DNA from: Rosellinia necatrix
Taxonomy: Eukaryota > Ascomycota > Sordariomycetes > Xylariales > Xylariaceae
NCBI GenBank assembly: GCA_021209875.1
Contig: JAGYVD010000001.1
Location: 372,001 to 436,000 of the forward strand
DNA: 64,000 nucleotides
Direction of reading: 5' to 3'
A program made the translations under genes and the position numbers. A model generated the notes under the pieces. The model was not told the DNA's origin, ran no database searches, and was given only the letters and a program-made list of their open reading frames with translations. Positions 3,574 to 53,002 of this stretch are shown in pieces (the stretch's first letter is position 1; each line of letters starts with the position of its first letter).

Positions 3574-5068
3574 CTAGGTTAGGTAACTAGTTAATTAGCA
3601 ACGACATACAGAACCCAGTAGGTAACCCGTATGTGTCCCTTGGCGGCTTCGGTGCGGACCGTGGCGAGCTGTGTTGTGCTGTTGTGCTGTTGTGTTGTTG
3701 TTCACTCAATTGACCGCTCTACTCCGTATAACCTAGATAACTTACAAGTAGGATTCATCCGCCGAGATGCAGAGGAGTGCCGTAGCGTACCGTACAGTGC
3801 TTTGTAACTATGTGCTGTGAAGGCCTGTGTTTTTGTTCGTTGTTCTAGAAAACCCAAGAGGGGCGCGCGGCCAAAGCTGGGCCAATCGAGATTGTACACG
3901 ACCACCCTGCCGCATGTTTCATGGCCTTGCGGGAGAAGTGGCCTGTCAGCCTCTTGTTCTAGTCGCCAGGTGCTGGGCTCCGTTCCCGAACTGGGGTGTT
4001 ATTGTCATCCTGAGTGTGAGGAGGTGACCAATAGGGAAATAAGATCGTGGGGGGGACATGAAGGCAGGCTTATGTATGTGTGTGTATGTATGTGTGTATG
4101 TGGTGTTAGTAGGACTGCCGTCTTCGCTCCGCTCCGAATCCTGCTTGTTACAGAAACCTCGGCTTACGCCATCTGACTGGCTCGATCACAGCGAGCTACC
4201 AGGTAGCGGCTCGAGTTTGTTGCTGATGATGTCCACTTACATCTAGTTACAGCATGTATGCGACGCTGTTATTCGCCCCGATAACTGCGAGGCACAAGCG
4301 ACGAAGAAAAAAAAAAATTAAAAAAAAAAAAAAAAATTAAAAACTTAGGAACCGGACTCCGTAGCCGTCGCATATACGGGGTTCTCATATCGGGATTCTT
4401 TTCAGCCCAGACGCGTCTGCTCAAATATGGTAGTTATTATACCAAACGGACCAAAAGCCGGCCGCCCTCAATTGCCGTAGCACATGTGATACAGCATGTA
4501 CTACGTACTATGTAACGAGACGAGGCGAGACGAGAGCACGACGAGAGGCATTTACCGCATTTACATAGTAATAGTGTCGAGTCCTACCACTTTACGCATC
4601 CCTGTCCGCCATCCACCTCACAGGGCACATCTGCAGGCATCGAGGAGCGAGGAGAGACCAAAAGTCGATTGACGATGCTGATTCGCTTGTGCCTGGATTG
4701 CGGGCTCGACCAGGCCAGGCTAGGGATCCCTTCGCCAAAGCACACTATTAAACACCGAGAGCGTCAACTATGCTTACAAGTACACTAAAGTAGTGTAGTG
4801 TAGTGTAGTTAGTGTGCGTAGACCCGGCACAGAATGCCTATAGAACCCGATGCTAAGCAGGGGAGTGCTGGCGAATTAGGGGGGCCCCTATCCCCAAACG
4901 GTCGTTAGATCTGGAATGTTTCTCGCGCGCGCAGATCACGGTCGCGATGTGCGGTCGTGAACCACGCCGAACACATGGCACCTCTCGGGCCTGGTCCCTG
5001 GCCACCTGGCTGTCACACACACGCACACACACGCGCATACACACCTTGGCGGCCTTATCGAGCACTCT

Positions 5069-5081
5069 TTTATTATTATTG

Positions 5082-5113
<32 letters not shown>

Positions 5114-5114
5114 T
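5069..5114. repeat. (TTA)n microsatellite
   Basis: Tandem TTA units interrupted by two TTG units. They produce artificial poly-Leu, poly-Tyr and poly-Ile frames on both strands. Confidence 0.95.
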
Positions 5115-6356
5115 TCAAGCTTCGGGAAAAGGATATCCAGTAGTCAGCGGTCGAGTAGTGTAAAACATGGCGGTGCCACATACCACATATAGAGAGATGA
5201 AAGGGCGGATGGGGAGCGGGCGGTGTGCTTCAACCGTTTCGATTACGACGAACCAACGCTTCGCAATTCATTCTTCTGCCGTTTCGTTTTTATCCCCTAT
5301 ATCCCGGCATGACACAAGAGCGAGACCTCCGAGTAGGTTATCCAGAGGCAAAGAGAGGGCGAGGGAAACGAGGAAAGAGAAAGATAGGCAGATGAGTTCC
5401 GCAGCTCTTCAATTCATGGATTACGACGCCCAGAAGAAACAGCGGTCGAATGTTATGGTATGGTACACCATGTGGGCTTTAATTTACTCGATGCCGGGCT
5501 CCAAACCAGCGTCATGGCTCGGTGGATGGATGGGGAAAAAAAAAAAAAAACAGGACAAGGCTTCTATTTCCGTCACACAATCAAGTTACACCCATCATTC
5601 TATCATCATTACCATCATCGAAGTCCTACGCCGGCTTGTGTTGTGCATACACTTCCACACTTTATATACTACGTATACCATGTATACCATGTATACCATG
5701 TGTGCACAGCCAACCAACTCAGATTAATTACAATATCACTCGGTAGGCGTGCGGCAGCGCCTTCGAGCCCCAGTCCGCAAGTCGACCCTTGTCTTGTTTG
5801 TGGGCTAGTTTTCTCTTTCGGTCCCCACGCCCGATGACACTACAGCGATCGCCCGCGCCTGTGCCCGTCGTGGGTGTGGCACCGCAAACGATGATTTGTG
5901 TCTCCATAAGTTTATGTACGACTTGCTGCCAACCCATGCTGTATCAGAACATGGGTGAACTTGTGGGTACCGACTTGTTGTGTGTGTATGTGTGTGTGTG
6001 TGTGTGTTGCTAGATGGCTGTCGTATGAAGGGGGGTTAGATCCTGCTTATACTTGTATATACAATACCAAGGTATAACTAGTCAGGGCCCATGAGACACT
6101 CGGTCGATACATAGGCAACTTGGTTATAGTAGCGTAACGTGGGAAAGGAACGGCGAAGGCGAAGGGATTCCTGCAAAGCACTAACTACCTATGTAAGTTA
6201 AACACATGTGCAGTATCAGCAAGGGCAAAGGCAAAGGCACAGGCACAGGCACAGGGAATGTCGGCTTCCTGGTAATTATTCTTTGGGGGCTAATTATGTG
6301 CACTTTGTAAAGCCGTTACAGGTCTAACACATGCCTACCGGCCTACCAGCCTACGT

Positions 6357-12864: not shown

Positions 12865-12869
12865 GTGGG
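12865..12869. repeat. Target-site duplication, left copy (GTGGG)
   Basis: GTGGG immediately precedes the 5' LTR and is repeated exactly after the 3' LTR. Five bases is the usual length for Ty3/Gypsy integration. Confidence 0.92.
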
Positions 12870-13115
12870 TGTTAAGATACAGGAGTACAGATTGAGATAC
12901 GGAAGTATATCACCTTACAGACCTACTTAGGGATCTATTAATAACCCACTGGATCTTTTGTGCTTTTATTTACGAACTGCTGTATTACTAGCTTTATTTT
13001 TTTTTTTATTAACTAAAAAATTGAAGTTATATATTAGTTTTAATTTAAAATTTTTGTTGTATTAGCTGTAGTTAGCAATATAATATTATTATTTTATATG
13101 CTGCTGGCTTTTATA
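12870..13115 (+). repeat. 5' LTR (246 bp)
   Basis: Aligns base for base in length with 27576-27821. Its outer half (to about 12960) keeps C and G bases that are T and A in the other copy. Its inner half is heavily mutated. The TG start is intact, and the terminal CA has become TA. Confidence 0.93.
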
Positions 13116-17779: not shown

Positions 17780-20660
17780 AATGCTGGAGTAATAAAATTA
17801 GTACTGCTGAGCCAACTTTATTTAATTATATTATTAGTTTTTATTATATAGCGAAAAAATAAACTAAAGCTTGTAATAAATTTTAAAAAATAAATATAAA
17901 AGTTATAAATAACATTTATTTTTTTAAACAAAATAATATATTAAAAGCTATATATAACGTTATAATATTTATAGTTGTAAATATTATAAAAAATACTATT
18001 AATAACTTATAAAAAAAAATAAATATAAAACAGCTTTTATTATTTTATATTATAAATAAAAACAACTTATAATCGCAATAATAAAGCTAAAATTATTTTT
18101 AGATTTTTTAATATAGAATAAAAACTTAATAAAATTTTATTTATAAAAATTTATATTAATATATATTAATAATATTATAATTTTTTTAAAACAATAATAA
18201 ATTATATTTATTATTTAAACATTATTTTTGATATTTTTATAAAATTAGGTTATATTATAGCGTTTAAAAAATGTTTTTTTATATAGCATGGATTTAAAGC
18301 GTTAAAACAATATATGTTTAAATTAAAGCTGTTTATAAATAAAAAAAAAAATAAAGCTATAAAAAACTTAGTAATACTTAAAAATCTTTAAAAACTTAAA
18401 AATAAATTAAAGCTTATAAGTTTTTAATAATATTATATTTATTAATTCGTAAGTATTACTGCATTATTAAATAAACTTAAAACATTAGGATTTAAAAACT
18501 GTTTAAAAAAAACTAATCCTATTAAAACTAAATAAACATATAACTGTTAACTGCTACCCGAGATACTGTTTTTTAAACTAAATTTTAAAATAAATATAAT
18601 ATTAACTTAAGCATAAAAATAATATAATAATATAATAGCTTATAAAAATAAAATATAAAAATAAGCATAAAAAGCATAAGATATTTTTAAAAACTGTATT
18701 TATAAAACTATTAGCTTAATATTTTTTAACTATAATAAACTTTTTATTTTATAAGTTAATTTAAACAGATTAAACAGCATTAGGGTAAAGCTATATTAAA
18801 AACAAGAAAATAATAAATTACGCTTTATATTGTTTTTATTTTACGTATTAATATTTATTAAAAAGTAATACAGTATTTATAAAATTAAAACCTATAATTT
18901 AATATAAATACTAAAAAAACTTATTTAATATTTTAATTATAACAAAATATATGTATATATAGATTATGCTGTAATAATATAAGCTTTTCGATCGATTATT
19001 AAGCGTTTAAAAAATCTAATTATTTAATTAATTAAAAAATGTTTTTAGCTAAATATAATAAAAAGATTTAAATATATTATATATTAAGCAAAATATTTGT
19101 AGATATTAATATATTATTTAAATTATTTTAAATAAACAATGCTATTACTCTGTTTATACAGCTTTTTAAGCTTTTTAAAGCTATATTATTTTTAATAATA
19201 ACTTAACAACAAGCTAAAAAAAAACAGCTTATAATTAAAAAAATTAAAACAAATTAAATTACTGCAGTATAGGAAAATATTAACATGCTAATTAAAACGC
19301 TAAAACTTAAACATTAAAATATATAACCGATATTTATACTGTAACAAATTATAGCAATACCGGCTATGCTAAAAATAAAAATTATGCTGCAAAATATATA
19401 AAATATAACAGTATTAGTAATATATATAGCATCTGAAATATAAAACAATATAATAAAAGCTATATAAATTAACTGTATATTTTATATAATATATAAACGT
19501 TTAATAAAACTATATAAAAATATTAAAACAAATAAAAAAAAGCTTATTATTATTTTATATATATTTTGCTACGATTTAAAATTTAAGCTGATATATTATA
19601 TAAATAATAATAAAAATAAACTGGTTATTTTTGCTACTATTTAAACTAAAGTACTGCGAATAGCATATAATAATCGAGCTTATTTTAGAATATAATAGAC
19701 AGCTAATTATTTATAATTTATATTATTTTTTTTAAATATTAAAAAACATGTTATAGAATATATTAAAGCCTGTTTTATATATGCATTAATAAAAAAAACT
19801 AGGCATTAATTATACAGAGATTTTTAATTAATTAATATTTTATATATACTTTTTTTTATATTATGTTTTGATTTTATTATCGGACTATTAAACTTTATAA
19901 ATAAAAATAACGTAGTATTAGCAGTAGTATATAAATTATTTAAATTTATTAAATATATTATCAGCAAAGATTTATATATTATAAAAAACTAGGCTTGATT
20001 ATATATATTTTATATATATTTTAACTAAAAATTATTAAACGTTTTTATATTAAATGCTAATTTTAAACTAATAAGTGGACTATAGACAGTATTATATAAA
20101 ACAGGCAATATTAATATTAAAATAACAGCATTATATTATTAAGCAGCTAATAAATAAGTTAAATATATTATTTAAATATTATAGACTTTATTAATTATTA
20201 TGCTAAAAAAAAAACTTAAAATTAATAATTAAAAAAACTTTGTTAAACATGCTATATATTGTTTTAATATATTAAAATCTGCTATTATTAAATAAATATT
20301 ATATAAGTTATTATATAAAAGAAAATTTAAAACTTTTTTATTAATTAATTTTAAAATTAAAAATAACTATATATAAACGCAACAGATACTGCGATAAAAA
20401 GCAGCAAATGTTATAATAATTATATAAACAAAAATAAAAATATATTATAATAACAGGCATAATAAACTATTAATTATTAATAAGCATAACTTAGTATATA
20501 TTAAACTAGCAAAGCTTAAACAGCTTAAATATTATTTATAAAATTAAACTAAGCTTATTTTTTTTAAAGTCGGTCCGTTTATAATCGAAAAAAAATTTAG
20601 CAATTTTAAATATTATATTAAGTTATTTAAATAGTTACGTTAATAAAAAAATATTTTGAT
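17780..20660 (+). pseudogene. pol: Decayed Ty3/Gypsy pol (reverse transcriptase, RNase H, integrase)
   Basis: The reverse transcriptase is recognised by an early AGVIK-type block near 17783, a KTAF box at 18027-18038 and an IYINNIII box at 18159-18182. The last reads as the catalytic Y-x-D-D box with both aspartates changed by G-to-A. KTAF and the catalytic box are in the same frame and 45 codons apart, the spacing expected for Ty3/Gypsy RT. Downstream, FDIFIKLGY and AFKKCFF (frame shifted by one base) match the thumb side of the family. RNase H and the integrase core are not cleanly readable. The integrase C-terminal module is: LAKLKQL ... KVGPF at 20566-20580. Many stops and at least two frame changes make it non-functional. 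Confidence 0.85.
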
Positions 20661-20748: not shown

Positions 20749-20880
20749 ATTATCGAAAATATTATTGATTATATAAAAACACGTCTAATTTTATTTTTAA
20801 CAGCTAAAATATAACTATGCTATAGAGTTAAATGGTTTAAATATATAAAAAAAACATAAAAACTAGCAATAAACTTTAAA
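20749..20880 (+). pseudogene. Chromodomain remnant at the end of Gypsy integrase
   Basis: In one frame this stretch reads IIENIIDYIKTR near its start and YRVKWFKYIKKT-stop-KLAINFK at its end. The order is that of a chromodomain: a V/I-E-x-I-L-D-like opening, then Y-x-V-K-W-x-x-Y, then a T-W-E-P-like block in which the stop sits at the tryptophan position and Leu at the proline position. The stop (TAA from TGG) and KL (from EP) are explained by G-to-A and C-to-T. Chromoviruses carry this domain at the integrase C-terminus, where it directs insertion towards marked chromatin. It directly follows the GPF module. Confidence 0.75.
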
Positions 20881-23800
20881 TAAAATATTTTTAATTTATT
20901 ATAATAATATTATAAACAAACTAAAACTAAAGCATTTATATATTAACCTAGGGATAAAAAAGTTATTAAAATAACTATATATTATAATAAGATGCTTAGA
21001 AAATAAACGTTTAATATTTAATATTTATTACTTCGTTATTATTCTAGCATAATATTAAAAAATATAACAGTTTTAAACATAACGTTAAAAAGTTTATTAT
21101 AATTAAAAATAATAAGTTCTTACAGGCTATATTTAATTAGCTAAAAAGCTAAAATAAAAATAATACCGATATAAATATATTATATTTATATAAACATATA
21201 AAAAGTTTATAAAACTTTTTAATATTTTTTAATAATATAAATTATTTTTTATTATTTTTAGTTTATAGTATATATATACTTAATAATAAAAGTATTTTAG
21301 TACTAAATAAATATTACGTATTTTTTTTATATTTAAAGCAAGCATTATATATAATTTATAATTATGCCTGCTAATTTATATTAATTACGTTTTTTTTTAA
21401 AATAAATTAATAAAAATAACGTATAAAATATAAATTAAAATAACCTTGTTTAAAATAAAAAAACTTTTTATTTCTACTACTTATTTATACAGCTTATTAT
21501 ATAATTTTATTTTATTATAAGTTTTATTTTTTATACGTTATAAATACACAGCCTACTTATAGTTATTAAAAAGCATAGCTTTTTTTTATTAAGTTATTTT
21601 TCTGTTTATTACGTATTAAAAGATTTATTATTAAAATACTAGCATATGTTTTTTTAACGCCGATTAGCGTAAAAATTAATCCTACGTTAGTTATTATTAA
21701 TAAAACTAAAAAACTAAAAAAAAAAATCATTATAATTATTATAAATAAAAAACGTAAAGCTATTTTTATTAATAATCGTTAATACTTTTAAACTAATAAA
21801 GTAGCATATAATACTATATTAATTATATATTAAAGTATATATGCAGCAGAAAAAGTATATATAACTGTTTATATTATTTACGTATTTTTTGCAGATTATA
21901 TTAATTATATTTAATTGTTTGGTATTAATAAAAAAAATATTTATTAATTCTTATTTAATTTTAGTAATATTAACGTTAATATAATTTATTAAAAACTTAT
22001 TTTAAAACAACTTTAGATTATAATATAAATAATATTATATAAATATAACAGAACAAATTTAATAACAAGCCTGCATTAAAAGATTAACAACTAACGTTTG
22101 CTAAGCTTTATTTATAATATTTTTAAAATAATTATTAAATTATATTTAAATATATTAAATAAAGCTTGTAGTAGTGCTATAGTTTCCCTGTTTATTTTGA
22201 TTTTTTTTGTATTAAATGTTTTAGTATTAATTATAATTATATATAATATTAACATTATAAAACAACTAATCTATATTTTTATTATAACGCTTTTAATTAT
22301 TATAAAATTAATTATAGTTTTAAAAGTTAAACATTTATATAATATATAAAAAAAAATTATAAATAAAAAAATACTTTTATTTTATATATCCTAGTAAAAA
22401 CATTTTTAACAAAATTAATGCTTTAAACTTAAGCCAGATTATTTTAAATATTTTATTAAATATTAATATTATTAATAAACGTGTTTATTATTATATTTAA
22501 AACGTTTTATATATTAATAAAGCAGAACAGATTAAAATATTATATATATTAGCAACTATAGCTTGTATTATTAGTTTTACAACTTTATAAAACTTTATTA
22601 TTAGTTTTATTAAAATTAAATAAAATATATTTAAATATATTACACCGTATAAAATTAATTATATACGTTCTATTAGCGTAAATATAATAAACGGCTATTA
22701 TATTACTATTAAAATTAATAACGTTTAATATAGCCGCCGTAAATTTTATATTAAGCATAAATATTAATATTATATTAACGCTATTAACAGTTATATTATA
22801 TTTATAAATATAAAGATTAAATATTCTGCTTTTAAGCAATAGCTAACTATTATTAAGATTAGCAAACAAAAGATTTGTTAATAAGCTAGAAATAAAAGCT
22901 ATAATAATATAGCTAAAGCACTTTTATACTTAATATTACTAATAAAAATGCTAATTAATACAACAGTTAATATTAATAGCATTTATTATATTTATTATAA
23001 TTTAGCAGTAATTAAACTTATTAATTTATATAATAAAAACTTTATAAATGTTTTAAAAAACATTAATATAGCTATAGCTGCGTTAAATCTACCCCGGCTG
23101 TTTTAAATAGCACTACTTGTTTATAATAATAAACTTAAACAGGTTGTAAATATTTTTATTAAAAAATAAAAATTTTATAACGTTAATCTATATAAAACTC
23201 TGCTTTAAAACGTTAAAAATAGTATTTTTAAAATATTAAACAAGCTTATTAATTATTTTAACACGTATTTTAAACAATAAAAAAAAACTAACATATATTT
23301 AAAAGTTATTAAAAAATCCGTTTGTTTATTATATAATATTATTTATAAACTTATATTTTAAAAAAGAATAATAGAACTTATTTTTTGCTGACTTATGCGT
23401 GCAATAGCTATTTTAATACCTGATTTAACTAGGCAAAAATACGTAACTATATAGCTAGTTATACTATTTAATTTTTGCGATCTTTTTATACTTTTCTGAC
23501 TTAATAACGTTTTAAAAATAAAATTTTAAAACGTTAAATATATATTATTATAACTTTTAAAAGCTATTTTTAATAACGTAAAAGCTAAACAGATTTTTAT
23601 TTAAAATATAATAAAAACTATATATATAGGACGTAATATTAATAATAAGTTATAAACCTGTTAGCAAGCTTATATTATATAACACTTAAATATTATTATT
23701 TTTTTTCGGAGAAAGCAAAAAAAATAGAATTTATTAATATTTAAGCAGTATAAATATTATTATATAAAATAAGCAGCAAAAAAAAAAGCTATTTAAATTA

Positions 23801-24901
23801 TAAAACGCGTATTATTAAGCAAATTTATGTTTTATAAAAATTAAATTATTTGCTAGCATTAACTATAGAAATATTAATTTTATTAGCTTATAAAGCCGTT
23901 TATATTTAATTAAATAAAAAGTAAGAATATATTAATACTATAGAGTTTATTGCTTTTGCTTCAGCTTATTTATATTAACGAAAAAAATAAAGAACTTTTA
24001 TATTTATTAAAATTAAAATTTCTGTAATTTAGATTTAAAAAAGACTATAAGCAAATATATTTATAAAAAAGCTTGTATAGCATAAAAATAAACTAAACGT
24101 TATTATTAAACTTATTTAATTAGTATATAAAAATACTGCGCTAGCTGAAATAAAAGCTATAGCTGAAACAATAATATTAAGCGATATTATAAAAAAAAAG
24201 TTAATTTTTTATTAATATTTAACTAATTTTAATAATAAATACGTAAAATATTATAATATTACGGCTTTTTTAGCAATATAATATTTGCTTAATCGTATTA
24301 ACAGCAAAAACGCTGCAAAAAGCGCAAATTTTACTACAGTTATTTAAAAAGTTAGTATAGTTTAAAATAAACAAGTTAATATTATTAAAGAATTATAAAT
24401 AGATAAATAGATTAAAAAATAAAAAAACTTTAATAAAAATATTAATAAAAATATTAATAAAAAAAAATATATAAAATATTAAATAACGCTGTTTAAGTTG
24501 ATATTAATATATAGAAAAATAATAGTAAAAACAAGATTAATATTAATATATTTTAATATATAATAGAATATAATATTAATATTATAAAAATATTAGAATA
24601 ATAAAACATTATAAAAATAAATTTAATTGTTTTTTTATAAAATATTTACGATTAAATAATAAATAAAAAAAGTTTATTATAAACGATTTTTAGGTTATAT
24701 TATATAGCTGTAAACTATTAATAAAATATTTAAAAAGCAGAAAATTAGTATTAAAATATTTTTTTTTTTAAATTGTTACTATAAAACGCGGCAAACTAAT
24801 ATAAACTTAAAATAATATAATTAGTATTAGTTGTTAAATAATAAATAATTTGTTTTTTATATTTTTATAACGTATTAGACGATTAGTTGCTATTTTAATA
24901 T
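20881..24901 (+). other. AT-rich decayed segment between chromodomain and helicase relic
   Basis: No known domain is readable. The first 200 bases could be the end of pol or its trailer. From about 23395 to 23850 one plus-strand frame stays coherent apart from RIP-type stops (for example AIAILIPDLTRQKYVTI), and a second coherent stretch lies near 24180-24500. Both look like former coding sequence. Short open frames at 22098-22349 (+) and 22585-22839 (-) are hydrophobic Ile/Asn/Tyr-rich translations typical of AT-rich DNA and are not called genes. Confidence 0.5.
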
Positions 24902-26355
24902 TAAAGCTGCAATTTTACGGCTAGACTGCTATTTAATTATATACGTATTATAGCTGTTATGTTTAATTAGAATAATAATTAGTTTAATAATATTGCAGCT
25001 TTTTTGCACGTAATATTTATAAAACTATAACTAGCGAAACTATTTTGTATTATATACGTTTTAATTATAATAATAGCAATAGGGAAGATATACGTGGATT
25101 TTACTGATATATATAGCGATAAAGATTTTGTTATTTTGTTTAAGCTAAAAAAACTGCTAGCAGAAGTTATATAACGCGGTTAAACAGCGTTATATAAAAA
25201 AAGTATTATTTAAAGTTTGCTTAAATTAATTAAAGCTGTTATAATAAAATATTTAAAATAACGTTGTATATATTTAATTATATAATATATTTTAATTAAT
25301 TTATAAATCTGTTAATAAAACGTAGCGCTATAAGAAAAAACAAGCAAGAAATTATATAAAAAATTGCTAGGGCAGTTAATTAAAACGTTATATTAACAGG
25401 CCGATATTATAGTTTGTACTTTTTTTGTTGTATTAACTTTAAGTATTATTATTAACCTGATAATAATCTGGATTAATAAAATATTTTGTATTATTAAATT
25501 AAATATATTTATTTTTTTAATTAAATAGTTTAAAGTATTTATGTAGATATTTTTAAATAATTTTAAATAAATGCAACTGTTAATTTTTTTAATATTATTA
25601 TATATAAGAAAAAACGAAAAAACTAAGCTTTTTAATTTATTTGTTTAATAGATAAAGCTTTTATTAGCAGCTAAAATAAAACAAGCTAAAGCAGTGCTAG
25701 TTTATAGTTTAATTGTTAATTATAAAGCTAAAAAAAGAGTTTTTTTATTTGTTTTATAAATATTTTATAACGGGCAAATAAAAAAATTCTATATTAACTA
25801 TAAAGATTTTATAGTGTTATAAGCCCGAGAATTTTTTTATAAACTAGCTGCATTAAATATAAAAAGATTATTAATTTTTTTTAATTTTAAAAATAATTAA
25901 AACAAAGCTTTAAATAGTATTAATATTTATAATATAGTTTATATAAACTATATTTAAAATATTATTGCTTTTATTTTTGCTTTTAATTTAGTATACTTAT
26001 TAAAATAACGATTAAATGTTATAATTATTATTTTTTATAAAATATAAGTTATAGTTCTGCAGCAGAAAATAAATAAATTATTTAAAGCTAAAATATACTA
26101 CGATTTTATTTAAATATATATAGTTTAAAAAGTTTAAAGTAATAAATTTAATATTTTTATTGCTGATTTTATTTAATTTAATAAAGCAGGATTTATTAAA
26201 AATAAATATTTAATAACTGTTATATTAACTTGTAGATTATATATAAATATTTAAGTAAGCAATACTGCTATATAAAATAAAAAAAATCGGAAGAATAGAT
26301 TTATTAAATAGTTAATTAAATTAAAATTATATTATTTTAAGCGGGCTGCAACTTA
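24902..26355 (+). pseudogene. RIP-inactivated superfamily-1 (UPF1-like) helicase inside the LTR element
   Basis: One plus-strand frame runs without any apparent insertion or deletion for about 1.45 kb. It is interrupted only by stops explained by CAA/CAG/CGA-to-TAA/TAG/TGA or TGG changes. SF1 motifs occur in order. A candidate Walker A is at 25067-25090 (AIGKI, compatible with A-T-G-K-T). ADIIVCTFF at 25400-25426 matches motif Ia/Ib. WINKI at 25469-25483 fits W-I-D-E-A after three transitions. NNFK-stop-MQLL at 25556-25582 matches the G-D-x-x-Q-L-P motif III. VNYKA at 25715-25729 matches the Q/N-Y-R motif IV. Near 26123-26168 a V-x-K-V-Q-G-like block leads into FNIFIADF (motif V). ITVILTCRLY at 26213-26242 followed by VSNTAI matches the UPF1-type motif VI ending (ALTRA...VGN). 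This fits the UPF1/NAM7 group better than Pif1. It lies on the same strand as pol and is absent from ordinary Gypsy elements. Confidence 0.72.
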
Positions 26356-27575
26356 AACATTTTTAAAAAGTAAATAAAATAATAAATGTTATTATTATAA
26401 AAAAATATATAAGAAACAACAAAAATATTACGCTAGATTTTAATATATTAATTATTAAGCAGCGTATTATGTTCGAAATTATATAAAAATAATTAAAACT
26501 CCGGTAGGATTATTTATTATATTAAAATAATTTTAAGTTATTTAAAAATAAAGCTAAGAAGTTATTTAGTTAAATATTTATTTATATATTATTAAAGGTT
26601 ATAAAATATTATAAAAACTTTAAAGAAGTTAAAAACAAAAAATTAAATAATAATAGGTTTTATAAAGCTTAATTTTGTAGAGCTGGCTTAAATATAAGTT
26701 TAATTTAAAACCTAATTAATTATAGAATAAAAAAAAATTAAATAAATAAAAACTATTACGCAAAAAACAAAATTAAATATGTTTTAAAAAATATTTAAGT
26801 ATTTTTTAACTTTTATAATAATATGTTATAAGCTTTAGTAATTAAGCTAATTAAAAACTAATCGTAAAATTTTTGATTTAAAAATTAATTAATAATATTT
26901 TATTAAAAATAAAGCAGAAAATAGCTGATTATATTATTAAATAATATTTAGCAGTAAAATATATTATTAAGTTTTTATTATACGATATTTAAATATTAAT
27001 AATTTAATTAGCGTATAAAATATATTATATTTATAATAAAAACAGTATAGCGTTATTATATATTTTTGTAATAAACAGAATATAAAATATAAAAACAACT
27101 GGTTACTAATATAAAATATATTATGCTGCTTATAAAATATAAATTTTAATTTATATATTAAAAAGCAGTAAATTTTTCTGTTATAAATATATATAACTAG
27201 TTTTTAATATAAGTATTAACGTAAAAATAAAATATTATTATAATAATACTTAAAACTATAACTAAATATAATAATTTTATAATTATAATTAATAAAAAGT
27301 AATAATAATTTTTAATATAATTATAAAGAACTTATTTATTAAAATTAAAATTGTTTTTATTATTAATTTCATAATAATTAATATTATTAATTTTACGACA
27401 ATTAAAATTAAAGTAGCTTTTATTATTAATTTTGCTACTATAAATATATAAAGCTTTTTAGCTGAAATTAATATAAAAAAAAAACTAAACGAAAATAATA
27501 AAAAAAGCAATATAAGCAGTAATAAATGTTTTAATAAATAATTATAAAAATATAATTAAATATAAAAGAAAGGGT
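26356..27575 (+). other. AT-rich decayed tail of the element up to the 3' LTR
   Basis: No domain recognised. It could contain the C-terminal part of the helicase-bearing gene or element trailer. The minus-strand open frame at 27289-27510 is an Ile/Leu/Lys-rich artefact of AT bias. The polypurine tract at 27564-27574 closes the segment. Confidence 0.5.
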
Positions 27576-27821
27576 TGTTAAAATATAGAAGTACAGATTA
27601 AAATACAGAAGTATATTATTTTACAGACTTATTTAAAAATTTATTAATAACCTACTAGATTTTTTATGCTTTTATTTACGAACTGCTGTATTACTAGCTT
27701 CACCTTTTTTTTTATTAACTAAGAAATTGAAGTTATATATTGGTCCTAATTTGGAATCCTTGTCGTATTAGCTGTAGCCAGCAATACAATACTATTATTT
27801 TGCGTGCCGCTGGCCCTTACA
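27576..27821 (+). repeat. 3' LTR (246 bp)
   Basis: Direct repeat of 12870-13115. Its first half is RIP-mutated. Its second half, from about 27690, is nearly free of mutation and ends in CCCTTACA. It is followed by the GTGGG duplication. Confidence 0.93.
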
Positions 27822-27826
27822 GTGGG
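27822..27826. repeat. Target-site duplication, right copy (GTGGG)
   Basis: Exact copy of the pentamer that precedes the 5' LTR at 12865-12869. Confidence 0.92.
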
Positions 27827-32311: not shown

Positions 32312-32614
32312 CACCTAATTACAATTCCGGTGCCTTGGCTTTCGTGAACGCAACGTTCCGTCGAGCCGCCTTGTTCTTTCGGTTCCCCCATTTGTGGTCC
32401 TCTTGCTGTATTGTTGCAGTCTGATCGCTTCCCCTGTCGCGTGACACCGTAGATCACGTTCAAATTGGCTCAACATTCAATCGACCCTGCGACTACGAGG
32501 AGACCGGTGAACTGCTTCACCAGCACCGTCGAGGGTAAGGCCAGCAGCCTGACGCGACCTATCTACAATCACAATATCCGACGCCTCGTCTCGAACAACA
32601 CGCTGTCTCCGACG
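28970..32614. other. Relic-bearing interval and upstream region of the bHLH gene
   Basis: No intact gene recognised. A plus-strand stretch near 29522-29670 reads coherently (VLFRSLIRHEQLGGWGC ... RFFVFKGIDFL) but is flanked by stops and has no start. It looks like a broken gene of unknown identity. Minus-strand frames at 30275-31059 are open but show no recognisable domain and disagree in frame. The last 600 bases carry GAA/GAC-rich purine tracts and a (CT)n run at 32279-32308, a plausible leader of the bHLH gene. Confidence 0.45.
32279..32308. repeat. (CT)n pyrimidine tract upstream of the bHLH gene
   Basis: About fourteen CT units some 300 bp before the bHLH start codon. Pyrimidine tracts are common just upstream of transcription starts in filamentous fungi, so it may be part of the promoter. 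Confidence 0.8.
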
Positions 32615-34196
32615 ATGCCGCGCGCCAAGATGTTGCCCACGCCGGCGTCCTCGACCGAGATCAAGGGCCAGGACCACTCGAGCAAGCTGTCTTCGCTCCA
32701 GCTGACCTTCGAGCTGCCTCCCTCGGCCATCAACTCCGGCGAGGCTCCCAAGCCCTCACGTTCCAATTCGAAGATGTCTCCCGTGTCGCCGACCTCGAAG
32801 CTACCCTACCTGCAGCCCAGCGAGACCGTGAAGGCGAGGAGGCGTTCCAGCACCGCCCAGCAGCAGCAGCAGCAGCAGCAGCAACAGCAACAGAAGGAGA
32901 CATTCGCCCTCCCGCCGCCGCCGACGAAGTCCCGCAAGATCATCCAGATGAAACCCCGCCCGCAGGCCGAGGCGGCAGCGGCCACGGTGGCCCCTCCCGC
33001 CAAGGGCAGTGTTAACACGGGTGGCCATGCCAAGAACGCTGGCACGGCGATGACGGGATCGAAGTCGACTGGCGCGGCCAAGAAGCAACCTTCGGCAACA
33101 AGCGCCGCGGGGCGGAAGATAGCGAGGAAGACGGCGCACAGCCTGATCGAGCGGCGGCGGAGGTCGAAGATGAACGAAGAGTTCGCCGTCCTGAAGGGCC
33201 TCATACCGGCCTGCACGGGCGAGATGCACAAGCTAGCCATTTTACAGGTCAGTTCCCAGTCCCCCCAGCCAGCCAGCCAGCCAGCCCACCCCAACCCATC
33301 ATATATGTTCCAAATAATCAATCCCTGCCAACCCTCCCTCCATCCCCCACCCCGGACCAAAATCAAGTCCGCCAAATCCCCAAGCTGACCCCCTCCTCCC
33401 CCCCGCCCCCAATCCCCAGGCCTCGATAGAATATGTCCGCTACCTCGAAGACTGCATCGCGAAGCTCAAAGCCCAGCACGACAGCGGCGGTAGCGGCGGC
33501 AGCAGCAGCAGGCCCGACCCGACGACGCCGTCCGAATTCCGGCCGGGGCACCATCGCGACTCGTGCGACGACGAGGACGATGACGACGATGACGACGATA
33601 ACGACGAGGAGAAGGAGTGGGCGGCAGCCACCAACGCCGCCGCCGCCGGCGGTATGGCGATGCAAGAGGACGTCGAGATGACGGATTCCGAGGCGACGCC
33701 GTCCCCGCCGACCTTCGCGACGGCCCCGCCGTCGGCCTCGACGACCTCGACGCCGTCGTCGTGCGTCTCCCCGGCGCTCCTGGCGCAGGACGCCCGCTCG
33801 TCGCGCCACCACTCGCTCTCCTCGCACGCGCCGCTGCCGCCGGACTACCAGCCGTACGCCCCGCGGACCTCGACGACGACGACGATGACGACGATGACGA
33901 CGACGACGACGGGGGGGCCGTCTCCCACGCACAGCAGCAGTGGCGGTGGCGGGGGTTGCTACGGGTATACATCCTCGGCGCTCGCGAGCCCCGCGCTGCG
34001 CCCGCAGCTCGAGATCGACCACGAGGTCTCCGCCGCGCTCCTCATGCTCGGCGGCGGTGGAGCGCCGGCGAATCTCCACCAGCATCACCAACTCCAACAC
34101 CAACACTCCAACGCCGGTAGTAGCAGTAGTAGCATCAATGCCGGCGGCGTCGGCTCCGCGCGGGGCATGAGCGTGCAGGATCTGCTCAGCTCATAA
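32615..34196 (+). CDS. Basic helix-loop-helix transcription factor
   Basis: Two exons, 32615-33247 and 33420-34196, give 469 residues. The 172-nt intron starts GTCAGT, has GCTGAC near its end as branch site, and ends CCCCAG. The bHLH domain spans about residues 167-228 and is split by the intron between helix 1/loop and helix 2. Its basic region has H175, E179 and R183, the H-x3-E-x3-R pattern that reads CACGTG-type E-boxes. Helix 2 contains ASIEYVRYLEDCIAKL. The N-terminal half is Ser/Pro/Lys-rich with a glutamine run (about 12 Q). After the bHLH come an Asp/Glu stretch, Thr/Met and Gly/Ser runs, and a short final SVQDLLSS. The first ATG in the frame is used. An upstream exon cannot be ruled out. 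It is a nuclear DNA-binding dimer by family, and its target pathway is unknown. Confidence 0.85.
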
Positions 34197-50454: not shown

Positions 50455-50677
50455 AAGAGAGAGAAACACTTACAAAAACACTTATCATGATAGGGTGGAG
50501 CACATCGTGGGTAGCTTATAAGGTGTCTCTGCTTACTTTTCCTAGCTAGGTAGCCATCCCTCAGCTTATAGGCAGTAATAACTATTGCGTCCTTCCAGCT
50601 ATAGGTAAGCCACACTTTTTTTTCATTTCGCATTTTCCCAAGCCCACATCTCAAGTGAAGGCAAGCGCGTCGTTCGA
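49623..50677. other. Intergenic region between the coiled-coil and HET genes
   Basis: AT-richer than the genes, with a (GA)n run at 50425-50464. No gene supported. The last 150 bases before 50678 contain the probable promoter of the HET gene. Confidence 0.55.
50425..50464. repeat. (GA)n purine tract
   Basis: GA units with AAAG interruptions in non-coding DNA about 230 bp before the HET gene. Confidence 0.85.
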
Positions 50678-53002
50678 ATGGGCCTCTGTCCGGCATGTAA
50701 AGGCCTCGACGTAGTCGCAGCGGTGCATCGAGCGCAAAAGCCCCCAGAACCCCCGCACGAAGACGAGGACGACGATGGGCACGGCGTGGTTGGTGGATGG
50801 CATGCGCTTGGCCGCGATGTCCTCGCCTCGGCTTCAACCTGCCAGTTATGCGCCTTGGTTTGCCAGGGCTGGAGGAAGTGGCGCGAGAAGGTGATCCGCG
50901 AGGCCGTCGTGGATGACATGTTTGATGAGTCAAACCCGCCCAAGGATCTTCGCGACGACATCAGCAAGATCGGGGCGTATGTAGAAGGGAGGACGGCGTT
51001 CAGCTTTGAGCGACGGGAACGTTATAGTGCCCAAGGCGAGAAGTGGAACTGCGTCCTCGCCATAGCCTGTACCAGTGTCAGCCCCGTTTCGTCCTTCGAT
51101 GTTCATGATCAACTCGTGGCAGAATTGAGAATTACTCATGCCAGCGACGACAGAGACGACTCTGCCGAACTCGCGGGGTTCGAGCTCGGCATCACGGTTG
51201 GGGAAGATCCCATGTCGCCATCAGGCGTTGCAACCGTAAAGGACTGGCTGCATCGCTGCGTATCGGAGCACGAGCCTTGCCGTGCTGGGATCGGAGCAGC
51301 GAGCCTGCCTACGAGGATCATTGACGTGGATGATGGGCTGAACAGCGACACCATCTTCTTACGGGAAAGTACCGCCGGGGTTGATGCCCGCTACGTGGCT
51401 CTTAGCCATTGCTGGGGGACCTCGCGCCCACTGTGTCTCACATCCGCTACTCTCGAGACCCATAAGCAAGGTATCTCTATTCGGGACCTCCCTAGAACTT
51501 TCAAAGACGCCGTGACCATTGTCCAGACCCTCGGGCTCCGCTATATTTGGATCGACAGCTTATGCATCGTCCAAGATGATGCCGAAGATTGGCGCAGGGA
51601 GGCCGGTCGCATGGCAGGGGTATACCGGGATGCGCATCTGGTTCTTTCCGCGGCCCGAGCCGGCTCAGATGAGGAGGGCTTCCTCGGTATCCGACCGAGA
51701 CCAGACCACGTTACGCTTACTACTCGGGGCGCTGACAAACCTCTCACTTTGACCCTTTTACCACCTGGGCCACTATGGAAGCAGGACAGCCTCGCCACCC
51801 ATATCCTCGCCGACGAGTCACTGAGTCACCGGGCATGGTGTTTACAAGAGCGCTACCTCGCGCGTAGGATTCTACATTACGGGACACAGCAGATGATCTG
51901 GGAATGTGGCGAGCTCATCGCCGCCGAAGACGGCGATTTCGCGCCCATCGCCAAGGATCAGCTGGGGCGGATCGCCAGGTCCGCGACCCTGGCCACGACC
52001 GTCTTCAACTCAAGGACGCGAGACGTCGACGGGGAAACAGAGGCGCCGGAGCACAGGCACATGGAGTGGCACGCCATGATCGAGGATTACACCAGCCGGG
52101 CCATAACGAAGGATTCGGACCGCCTCCCAGCGCTACTCGGCCTGCGCGCGGCGCTCGAGTCGGAGCTGGACGACCATTACCTGAGCGGGATCTGGCTTAG
52201 GGGGCTCCTGGAGGGGCTCGCGTGGTGCGCCGCGTCGCGCGACAACCCGCTTGCCCGACCGGAGGGTTTCACGGGCCCGTCGTGGACATGGGCGTCCGTG
52301 AAGGGCCCGGTCCAGTTCCCCATGTACTCGTGGTTCGACAAGCGGGCCCACTGGAAAGTGCAGAGTACCTTCGAGCCCCTAGCCGACTACACAGGCCACG
52401 GCGAGGAGCCAGACGACGATATCGCCGCCGCCGCCGCCGCCGCCCCAGGTCCCCAGCGGCTAGAGTTGCTCGCGCCCGTCGTCCCCGTCCGCGGCGCGCG
52501 GCCGCGAGCCAAGACGCCGCCGGAGAGCGGGGCGGTCCTGGGGAACGCGCCGGACCGGTCGGCCGTGGCGGGCCGGAGCTTCTGTTTCCGGGCGCGCGAC
52601 GGCCACGGCGCGGCCGGCAAGACGCGGGAGTTCTGGATCGACGGCGGGTTCGACGTCGAGGGGGAAGGGGAGGGCGAGGGCGAGGGCGCCGCCGTCGACG
52701 CGAGCGAGCTGCACCTGGTTTTCCTGGCGCGGCTGCCGTTCATCTTCGAGGACTCCGACTTCCTCGAGCACCGCTTCGGGCTCCTGGTCGTGCGCCAGGG
52801 CGAGACGACGGGCGACGGCAGCGACGGCAGCTATAGGAGGGTCGGGTTCGTGGACGGATGCCTGCTTCGCAGGAGCCTGCTGCTTCGGAAGGAGACCGTC
52901 GCCGCGTGGCCGTGGCATGGCGGCGACATGTACGCCCCCGAGGTGAACGGGTTGGCCCCGGATCCTCTTAGGCTCGAACGGGATCGGGTTACGCTCATAT
53001 AG
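50678..53002 (+). CDS. HET-domain (heterokaryon incompatibility) protein
   Basis: An intronless 774-residue frame. The N-terminal 60 residues hold a CPACKGLD motif and a CQLCALV motif, a cysteine pairing often found before HET domains. The HET domain itself is clear: YVALSHCWG from residue 239, the DLPRTFKDA block, YIWIDSLCI from residue 289 with IVQDDAEDW, the GVYRDAHLVLSAARA block, and further down LSHRAWCLQERYLARRILHYG from residue 382. The C-terminal 300 residues are variable and contain an Ala run, a Gly-Glu repeat (GEGEGEGEG) and a late region with no named domain. HET-domain proteins trigger cell death when unlike individuals fuse. No NACHT, WD40 or SesB-like partner domain is present. 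Codon bias rises sharply in the last third, where the reverse strand shows open shadows. Confidence 0.93.
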   Translation: MGLCPACKGLDVVAAVHRAQKPPEPPHEDEDDDGHGVVGGWHALGRDVLASASTCQLCALVCQGWRKWREKVIREAVVDDMFDESNPPKDLRDDISKIGAYVEGRTAFSFERRERYSAQGEKWNCVLAIACTSVSPVSSFDVHDQLVAELRITHASDDRDDSAELAGFELGITVGEDPMSPSGVATVKDWLHRCVSEHEPCRAGIGAASLPTRIIDVDDGLNSDTIFLRESTAGVDARYVALSHCWGTSRPLCLTSATLETHKQGISIRDLPRTFKDAVTIVQTLGLRYIWIDSLCIVQDDAEDWRREAGRMAGVYRDAHLVLSAARAGSDEEGFLGIRPRPDHVTLTTRGADKPLTLTLLPPGPLWKQDSLATHILADESLSHRAWCLQERYLARRILHYGTQQMIWECGELIAAEDGDFAPIAKDQLGRIARSATLATTVFNSRTRDVDGETEAPEHRHMEWHAMIEDYTSRAITKDSDRLPALLGLRAALESELDDHYLSGIWLRGLLEGLAWCAASRDNPLARPEGFTGPSWTWASVKGPVQFPMYSWFDKRAHWKVQSTFEPLADYTGHGEEPDDDIAAAAAAAPGPQRLELLAPVVPVRGARPRAKTPPESGAVLGNAPDRSAVAGRSFCFRARDGHGAAGKTREFWIDGGFDVEGEGEGEGEGAAVDASELHLVFLARLPFIFEDSDFLEHRFGLLVVRQGETTGDGSDGSYRRVGFVDGCLLRRSLLLRKETVAAWPWHGGDMYAPEVNGLAPDPLRLERDRVTLI

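What the first reader, a model, noticed from the sequence alone, without database searches (positions are those of the whole stretch)
24902..26355. A superfamily-1 UPF1-like helicase carried inside an LTR retrotransposon
Seen directly: within exact LTR and target-duplication boundaries, 4 kb downstream of the chromodomain, one plus-strand frame contains SF1 motifs in order: an ADIIVCT block, a W-I-D-E-A-like Walker B, a G-D-F-x-Q-like motif III, N-Y-R, a V-Q-G ... F-x-I-F-I-A-D-F motif V and a final L-T-x-x-x ... V-x-N. Established knowledge: Gypsy elements encode gag, protease, RT, RNase H, integrase and sometimes chromodomain or envelope, not UPF1-type helicases. Inference: the element either captured a host helicase gene or belongs to a large lineage that carries its own helicase. 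This is the strongest candidate here for an undescribed system.
Basis: partly seen in the sequence, partly recalled or inferred. Interest (0 to 1): 0.9.

Follow-up and report, generated by a model that had tools for sequence, protein, structure and literature searches.

The report
Helicase-carrying fungal LTR retrotransposon family
A large, now mutated family of virus-like jumping genes in what looks like a fungus carries, as part of the copied unit, the remains of a gene for a UPF1/Sen1-type nucleic-acid-unwinding enzyme, an unusual passenger for such an element.

Summary
Real, not chance. The window holds one 14,952-bp LTR retrotransposon (LTRs 12870-13115 and 27576-27821; target duplication GTGGG), mutated by RIP to about 14% GC. 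One plus-strand frame holds motifs II-VI of a UPF1-like superfamily-1 helicase (25463-26233; an Ib-like motif at 25400 by eye). Pfam AAA_12 is sub-threshold but recurrent (window E 0.008; best piece 3.4e-5). A RIP-tolerant comparison with an SF1-helicase profile gives z 10 (0 of 100 shuffles); of 90 frame-windows only the two holding this frame exceed z 3.6. The block belongs to the element: of 14 same-strand LTR pairs enclosing pol, 13 enclose it on the same strand and one in inverted orientation. Ten other copies differ from the window mainly by transitions (138-200, against 1-15 transversions). No nested-element ends were found. Not shown: motif I, the content of 21.2-25.4 kb, origin, expression, function, any unmutated relative; the Gypsy/chromodomain assignment rests on weak matches. 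Precedent: insect LINEs and Copia-related ORFs with virus-type SF1 helicases (PMC6338049, PMC5563155). A UPF1-type helicase in a probable fungal Gypsy element is best called a new variant of a known kind.

The parts
12865..12869 (.). 5' target-site duplication GTGGG
   Evidence: read directly; equals 27822-27826
12870..13115 (+). 5' LTR, 246 bp
   Evidence: LTR pair aligned: 241 columns counted, 41 transitions, 0 transversions, 0 gaps; repeat first reported
18737..18988 (+). pol: RT-associated RNase H (RT_RNaseH)
   Evidence: Pfam PF17917 E 0.057 (PF17919 E 0.09), sub-threshold, in 1 of 3 plus frames read with X at stops
19651..19791 (+). pol: integrase zinc-binding domain (approximate: found in another copy and projected)
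   Evidence: Pfam PF17921 E 0.04, sub-threshold, in copy L064, residues 726-772; projected through the collinear match
20770..20918 (+). chromodomain (weak; start approximate)
   Evidence: RIP-tolerant profile of 6 chromodomains of this genome: local z 3.5, 0 of 40 shuffles, ends 20918; not above shuffles when the whole element is scanned
21105..21218 (+). stretch shared with another AT-rich repeat family ('TE2')
   Evidence: purine/pyrimidine pattern identical over 21144-21218, extended to about 21105 with a one-base gap; 81-87% identity at four places outside this family
21219..25369 (.). content unresolved; present in the copies together with the rest of the element
   Evidence: no Pfam hit in six frames of 20900-24400 or of a better-preserved copy; genome search
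25370..26357 (+). SF1 (UPF1/Sen1-type) helicase block: Ib-like motif by eye, motifs II-VI by alignment, one frame with stops
   Evidence: AAA_12; profile alignment 25463-26233, z 10.0-10.1
27564..27574 (+). polypurine tract AAAAGAAAGGG just before the 3' LTR
   Evidence: read directly
27576..27821 (+). 3' LTR, 246 bp
27822..27826 (.). 3' target-site duplication GTGGG

Best explanation
A 15 kb LTR retrotransposon family, most likely of Ty3/Gypsy chromodomain type, carries in sense orientation between pol and the 3' LTR a UPF1/Sen1-type superfamily-1 helicase gene that was copied with the element; RIP later destroyed the copies. Shown: helicase motifs II-VI, their place inside the LTRs, presence in 13 of 14 same-strand LTR pairs that enclose pol (inverted inside the 14th), near-identity of copies apart from transitions. 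Inferred: the protein was made and active, and acted on the element's own RNA or RNA-DNA intermediates, by opening structure during reverse transcription or packaging, or by interfering with host RNA surveillance or silencing. I hold an action on the element's own nucleic acid more likely than a host-serving role, but only weakly (about 0.4 for that step). The confidence given is for the anatomy together with 'functional cargo'.
For: AAA_12: window E 0.0083; 2 of 10 other copies, E 1.1e-4 and 4.7e-4; 5 of 15 in-frame pieces, best 3.4e-5; 0 of 10 other frames of three copies. RIP-tolerant SF1 profile: z 10.0; of 90 frame-windows over the element and other AT-rich repeats only the two holding this frame exceed z 3.6. 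Three other copies stand out in the frame expected from the copy alignment (L005, L011, L002). 13 of 14 same-strand LTR pairs enclosing pol enclose the block on the same strand, one inverted. Over 24902-26355 ten other copies differ from the window by 138-200 transitions, 1-15 transversions and 1-18 gap columns; LTR pair 41 transitions, 0 transversions. No nested-element-like repeats in purine/pyrimidine space over 20901-27580. In the window the alignment to helicases stays in one frame over 25463-26233; stops over 25586-26353 are 13 TAA and 2 TAG, no TGA, the kinds that RIP makes.
Against: Motif I (Walker A) not found: no GPPGTGK[ST]-compatible string on the plus strand even allowing RIP, no profile support upstream of motif II, no AAA_11 match. 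8 of 10 other copies gave no AAA_12 match on full-length reads; I blame single-base homopolymer differences, but these could also mean that the gene was broken before it spread. From the block printed, 7 of 11 copies (window included) stay in frame across 25570-25640, 4 of 11 do not. All Pfam scores are under the cut-off. Single host helicases: only L021 has z above 3.5, and the L027 alignment is out of register. Two profile searches and one single-copy search of the PDB, ncbifam and two searches of 5.8 billion proteins found nothing. No transcript or protein evidence.
Confidence: 0.65

Rival explanations
1. Passenger capture: a fragment of a host or other SF1 helicase gene was picked up (for example by template switching), lacks motif I, and rode along as inert cargo through one burst.
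For: No Walker A found; frames differ between copies at homopolymers; a stretch at 21105-21218 is shared with another repeat family, as a capture scar might be; the copies look like one recent burst.
Against: The segment between chromodomain and 3' LTR is long (about 6.6 kb) and its helicase part is retained in 13 of 14 same-strand LTR pairs enclosing pol, inverted in one (in the C11 copy only 995 of 1454 bp matched); helicase similarity keeps to one frame over motifs II-VI in the window; no close donor gene found in this genome (RIP limits these).
Confidence: 0.25
2. Nested insertion: a separate transposon carrying the helicase landed in an ancestor of the family between chromodomain and 3' LTR.
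For: The distance from chromodomain to 3' LTR is long; a short stretch near its left edge is shared with another repeat. One search lists 7 direct and 31 inverted short repeat pairs in 20900-27580, but at 70-81% identity, which I take as chance in such AT-rich DNA.
Against: In purine/pyrimidine space, where RIP is invisible, only a 63-bp-spaced tandem repeat and two local inverted matches appear; the protein search found 29 matches, all in copies or fragments of this element. The copies that lack the block (C4:2317877, C1:5837835) are truncated or rearranged and have no 3' LTR partner.
Confidence: 0.07
3. Chance: AT-rich, RIP-mutated sequence that resembles a helicase by accident.
For: Pfam scores are below the cut-off of 27 bits (16.1, 22.3 and 20.2 bits); single unrelated families match single pieces, SNAPC3 at E 0.015; one other frame-window of the element reaches z 3.6 with 0 of 20 shuffles.
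Against: z 10 in one frame, motifs II-VI in register and order; AAA_12 in several separately mutated copies at the same place; other repeats and frames give nothing comparable.
Confidence: 0.03

Closest known systems
Insect retrotransposons with SF1 helicases (TRAS/R1 and Jockey LINEs; Ty1/Copia-related fusions in Aedes aegypti and Leptopilina boulardi)
   Same: A retroelement that carries an SF1 helicase domain besides its usual enzymes (PMC6338049: part 1 of 4 and passages; PMC5563155: passages).
   Different: Those helicases are described as virus-like and sit in LINE ORFs or Copia fusions in insects; here AAA_12 (UPF1/Sen1-type) in a probable Gypsy element of a probable fungus. No PF01443 match was reported.
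Ty3/Gypsy chromoviruses of fungi
   Same: LTRs, 5-bp duplication, polypurine tract; weak RNase H, integrase zinc finger and chromodomain matches in that order.
   Different: 14.95 kb with an extra ~6.6 kb after the chromodomain, helicase included. The usual coding content is recalled, not from a call.
Telomere-linked helicase repeats of fungi (Colletotrichum higginsianum; Mycosphaerella graminicola)
   Same: Fungal repeats with helicase domains; one Colletotrichum family also has retrotransposon domains (PMC5576322, PMC4522978: passages).
   Different: Those are described as RecQ-type and (sub)telomeric; here AAA_12 type, with copies on 7 contigs.
UPF1/Sen1-family helicases of the host
   Same: Motifs II-VI align in register with a profile led by a Sen1-like host gene.
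   Different: Motif I not found; no host gene was found to be a close copy.

Membership tests
UPF1-like SF1 helicase | C-terminal core (motifs IV-VI), Pfam AAA_12 | tested here: met
   all Pfam scores sub-threshold
UPF1-like SF1 helicase | Motifs II (DEAx) and III (GDxxQ) in register | tested here: met
   program alignment to L021 and to the profile, up to RIP-type transitions: observed letters are W-I-N-K and F-L-N-N-F-K-x-M-Q; L024 in register too, L027 not
UPF1-like SF1 helicase | Motif I, Walker A | tested here: inconclusive
   no GPPGTGK[ST]-compatible string on the plus strand; no profile support upstream; 13 generic G....GK[ST]-compatible places in 23600-25370 say nothing
UPF1-like SF1 helicase | Pfam AAA_11 | tested here: not met
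   not reported; weak evidence, since RIP lowers all scores
LTR retrotransposon | LTR pair, target duplication, polypurine tract | tested here: met
Ty3/Gypsy | Order RT-RNase H-integrase | tested here: inconclusive
   RT_RNaseH E 0.057 upstream of Integrase_H2C2 E 0.04 in another copy, both sub-threshold; no RVT_1 match; comparison with another pol ORF of this genome gave no signal in the right order
Chromovirus | Chromodomain after integrase | tested here: inconclusive
   z 3.5 locally, not above shuffles over the whole element
Insect-type viral SF1H retrotransposon | Virus-like helicase (PF01443) in a LINE ORF or Copia fusion | tested here: not met
   no PF01443 match; the element has LTRs, so is no LINE
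Nested transposon | Own terminal repeats, separate copies | tested here: not met

The most novel reading that the evidence does not exclude
A lineage of giant fungal chromodomain Gypsy elements keeps its own UPF1/Sen1-type helicase as a working extra gene, used on its RNA or RNA-DNA hybrids or against host RNA surveillance: an LTR retroelement with its own helicase, as many RNA viruses have.
Probability: 0.3. Interest if true: 0.85.

Novelty: new variant of a known kind. Interest (0 to 1): 0.6.

Why it matters
LTR retrotransposons are thought to rely on host helicases (recalled). A family with a UPF1/Sen1-type helicase of its own would show that such elements can take over a step of RNA quality control or RNA-DNA hybrid removal, and would extend the insect observations to fungi, to Gypsy-type elements and to a cellular-type helicase. 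It would make the role of UPF1-family helicases in retrotransposition testable through a natural gain of the gene.

Tried and rejected
blastp of in-silico RIP-degraded host helicases against the element: composition noise. First single-sequence RIP-tolerant scan: best hit in the right frame but close to its null; followed by shuffles (L021 z 5.3 over 40 shuffles; five others 1.3-3.4, two of them from one gene) and by a profile. Purine/pyrimidine codon periodicity: symmetric between strands, no use. Searches were scripts that failed (import error, missing file) and were rerun. Alignment A3 misplaced the motif Ib-III pieces and was dropped; A4 holds 14 of the 22 in-frame copy pieces of at least 40 codons reaching past 25584 (L005's trimmed to start at 25586) plus the window; A5 holds the 7 copy pieces of 25370-25583 plus the window. 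First copy alignment had two minus-strand loci unturned; redone. Of the ten frames, three (L002 and L010 from 1501, L011 from 1503) are the frames of those copies' Ib-III part, so they are not pure controls; they gave nothing either. Unmutated relatives: 7991 candidates scored, none E <= 10; 137 candidates, none. That database does hold fungal proteins: the host Sen1-like ORF found relatives, one named Xylaria curta at 83% identity, which hints at a xylarialean host. Comparison of pol with another pol ORF of this genome: no signal (one minus frame had z 5.2 over 8 shuffles, which I take as noise). TE2: no Pfam hit, no helicase signal. PADLOC, PHROGs, Rfam, structure prediction and fold search were not used. 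L035-L040 and L042 were fetched but not used.

Full report
What is there. The window is G000:C1:372001-436000 of an unnamed 49.1 Mb, 12-contig genome. GC falls from about 50% to 12-17% in 1-kb steps between 13.0 and 27.0 kb. The AT-rich block is an LTR element: 246-bp LTRs at 12870-13115 and 27576-27821, beginning TGTTAA and ending TTATA/TTACA, flanked by GTGGG on both sides, with AAAAGAAAGGG before the 3' LTR. The LTRs differ at 41 of 241 columns counted, all transitions, so apart from RIP the insertion looks young.

RIP. In the helicase region (24302 onward, 11 copies) GC is 11-17%. Over 24902-26355 ten other copies (L002-L011) differ from the window by 138-200 transitions, 1-15 transversions and 1-18 gap columns each. 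Before RIP these copies were therefore nearly identical, helicase block included. Most indels are short and lie in A/T runs. RIP as the cause is established knowledge of filamentous ascomycetes (recalled) fitting the transition excess.

The helicase by Pfam. Read with X at stops, the plus-strand frame gives AAA_12 at E 0.0083 in the window (0.0011 when the 257-aa piece is given alone), 1.1e-4 in copy L002 and 4.7e-4 in L005; 8 of 10 other copies gave none on full reads. Of 15 in-frame pieces (the window plus 14 of 22 copy pieces available) 5 matched AAA_12, best 3.4e-5; three other families had one member each, the best SNAPC3 at E 0.015. The 8 members of the motif Ib-III alignment gave nothing. 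Ten other frames of three copies, six plus and four minus, gave nothing. For scale, the pol region of the window gave only RT_RNaseH at 0.057 and RT_RNaseH_2 at 0.09, that of a better copy only Integrase_H2C2 at 0.04. All these scores are under the curated cut-offs.

The helicase by a RIP-tolerant score. Because RIP turns C to T and G to A only, I scored observed codons against proteins with an emission model that allows these changes, one copy at a time and without rebuilding a sequence. The profile came from ten open frames at AAA_12 loci of this genome (chosen by length; one or two may not be helicase exons) and two Sen1-like database proteins from unnamed sources. The window frame scores 32.8 (25 shuffled-column profiles: mean 16.6, max 21.4; z 10.0); the other five frames have z -0.9 to 2.4. 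Over 90 frame-windows covering the element, repeat TE2 and two other AT-rich stretches, the two windows holding this frame have z 13.0 (0 of 20 shuffles) and 10.1 (0 of 100); the next have 3.6 and 2.6 (0 of 20 each), both in the element in other frames. Among the ten other copies (4 shuffles each) L005, L011 and L002 stand out in the frame expected for them (27.1, 28.0, 23.0 against null maxima 15.3, 12.2, 12.7); the others less or not. The alignment runs from 25463 to 26233 and sets motifs II, III, IV, V and VI in register. With single host helicases, L021 has z 5.3 and aligns motifs II-IV in register; L024 aligns II and III in register; L027 (z 3.3) aligns out of register. This is too little to name a subfamily. 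The names Sen1 and UPF1 and the motif numbers are recalled; relatives of L021 are called 'senataxin' by a source.

What is missing. No string compatible with GPPGTGK[ST] under RIP exists on the plus strand of the element, and the N-terminal half of the profile finds nothing in 22000-25480. Motif I may be a variant, lie across a frame break or intron, or be absent. The content of 21.2-25.4 kb is unknown.

Part of the element or guest? LTR search found 36 places; the pol, middle and helicase searches found the rest of the copies (counts are lower bounds). Pairing neighbouring same-strand LTR hits gives 15 pairs. One (C7:5598866-5620642) joins two neighbouring copies and encloses neither pol nor helicase. 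Of the other 14, all of which enclose pol, 13 enclose the helicase on the same strand (995-1454 bp matched; eight span 14.4-16.8 kb, five 23-107 kb, enlarged I presume by later insertions); in the 14th (C4:3198351-3280386) the helicase pieces lie on the opposite strand. Eight LTR hits stayed unpaired. Two of these belong to copies without the block, C4:2317877 and C1:5837835, whose matches stop at about 24.5 and 21.8 kb, the second rearranged. A C10:183 kb fragment holds short pieces of pol and helicase. A protein search of the genome with the L002 piece found 29 matches, all in these places. In purine/pyrimidine space (60-bp windows, at most 9 mismatches) 20901-27580 shows only a tandem repeat at 27338/27401 and two local inverted matches at 21.65-21.71 and 25.91-25.97 kb; one search lists further short pairs at 70-81% identity, which I take as chance. 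I conclude that the helicase was copied as part of the element.

A possible scar. 21144-21218, just after the chromodomain, is identical in purine/pyrimidine pattern to a stretch inside the end of another AT-rich family, TE2; with a one-base gap the match reaches back to about 21105. It occurs on C3, C4, C9 and C10 outside this family at 81-87% identity. On C10, TE2 seems to have 116-bp direct end repeats about 7.5 kb apart, so it may be an LTR element too. This may mark a recombination or template switch that brought in the extra segment; it is no proof.

Mechanism. Shown: anatomy, common transposition, later RIP-type mutation. Inferred: the gene was expressed and useful. UPF1-family helicases act on RNA structure, RNA-DNA hybrids and RNA-bound proteins (recalled). 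A retroelement could use this for reverse transcription or packaging, or to protect its RNA from surveillance or silencing; both kinds of idea are put forward for insect elements in PMC6338049. I rank action on the element's own nucleic acid first, at about 0.4, and inert cargo as the main rival.

Known or not. PMC6338049 (part 1 of 4 of the text, and passages) and PMC5563155 (passages) describe insect LINEs and Copia-related ORFs with virus-like SF1 helicases. PMC3248453 (passages) mentions 'complex transposons' with additional domains in fungi, from multiple insertions; the word helicase does not occur in its main text. PMC10799480 (passages) deals with helicases of DNA transposons and host fusions. 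PMC5576322 and PMC4522978 (passages) describe RecQ-type telomeric repeats. In nine searches I saw no fungal Gypsy element with an SF1/UPF1-type helicase; the library lacks most subscription papers, and most listed papers I saw only in the listing.

Noticed in passing
window 21105-21218; L045:7955-8294, L046:4532-4808, L047:6518-6711 (minus): A stretch shared, apart from transitions, between this element and another AT-rich repeat family; possible recombination scar or shared leader.
   Followed up: partly
L046 from 3917, L047, L045 from 7724: Another AT-rich repeat family (TE2), with what seem to be 116-bp direct end repeats about 7.5 kb apart on C10; no Pfam domain in four frames read.
   Followed up: partly
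window 21219-25369: About 4 kb of element sequence without any recognised domain, perhaps the N-terminal part of the helicase ORF or another gene.
   Followed up: partly
window 25584 and 25607-25616: Homopolymer length differences between copies; 4 of 11 copies are out of frame across 25570-25640. Real or sequencing error unknown.
   Followed up: partly
L045:452-766 and 4755-5276: Inverted repeat arms, 74-78% complementary, about 4-4.6 kb apart, outside TE2: possibly a separate inverted-repeat element.
   Followed up: no
G000 contig C12: RVT_1 matches with TGA inside the frame, two with identical scores at C12:36012 and C12:150725: C12 may be mitochondrial, with a repeated segment.
   Followed up: no
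window 50609-53002 and 32453-34196: Host ORFs outside the element: a 797-codon ORF that reads like a HET-domain protein, and ORFs that read like a bHLH transcription factor (translations; names from recall).
   Followed up: no
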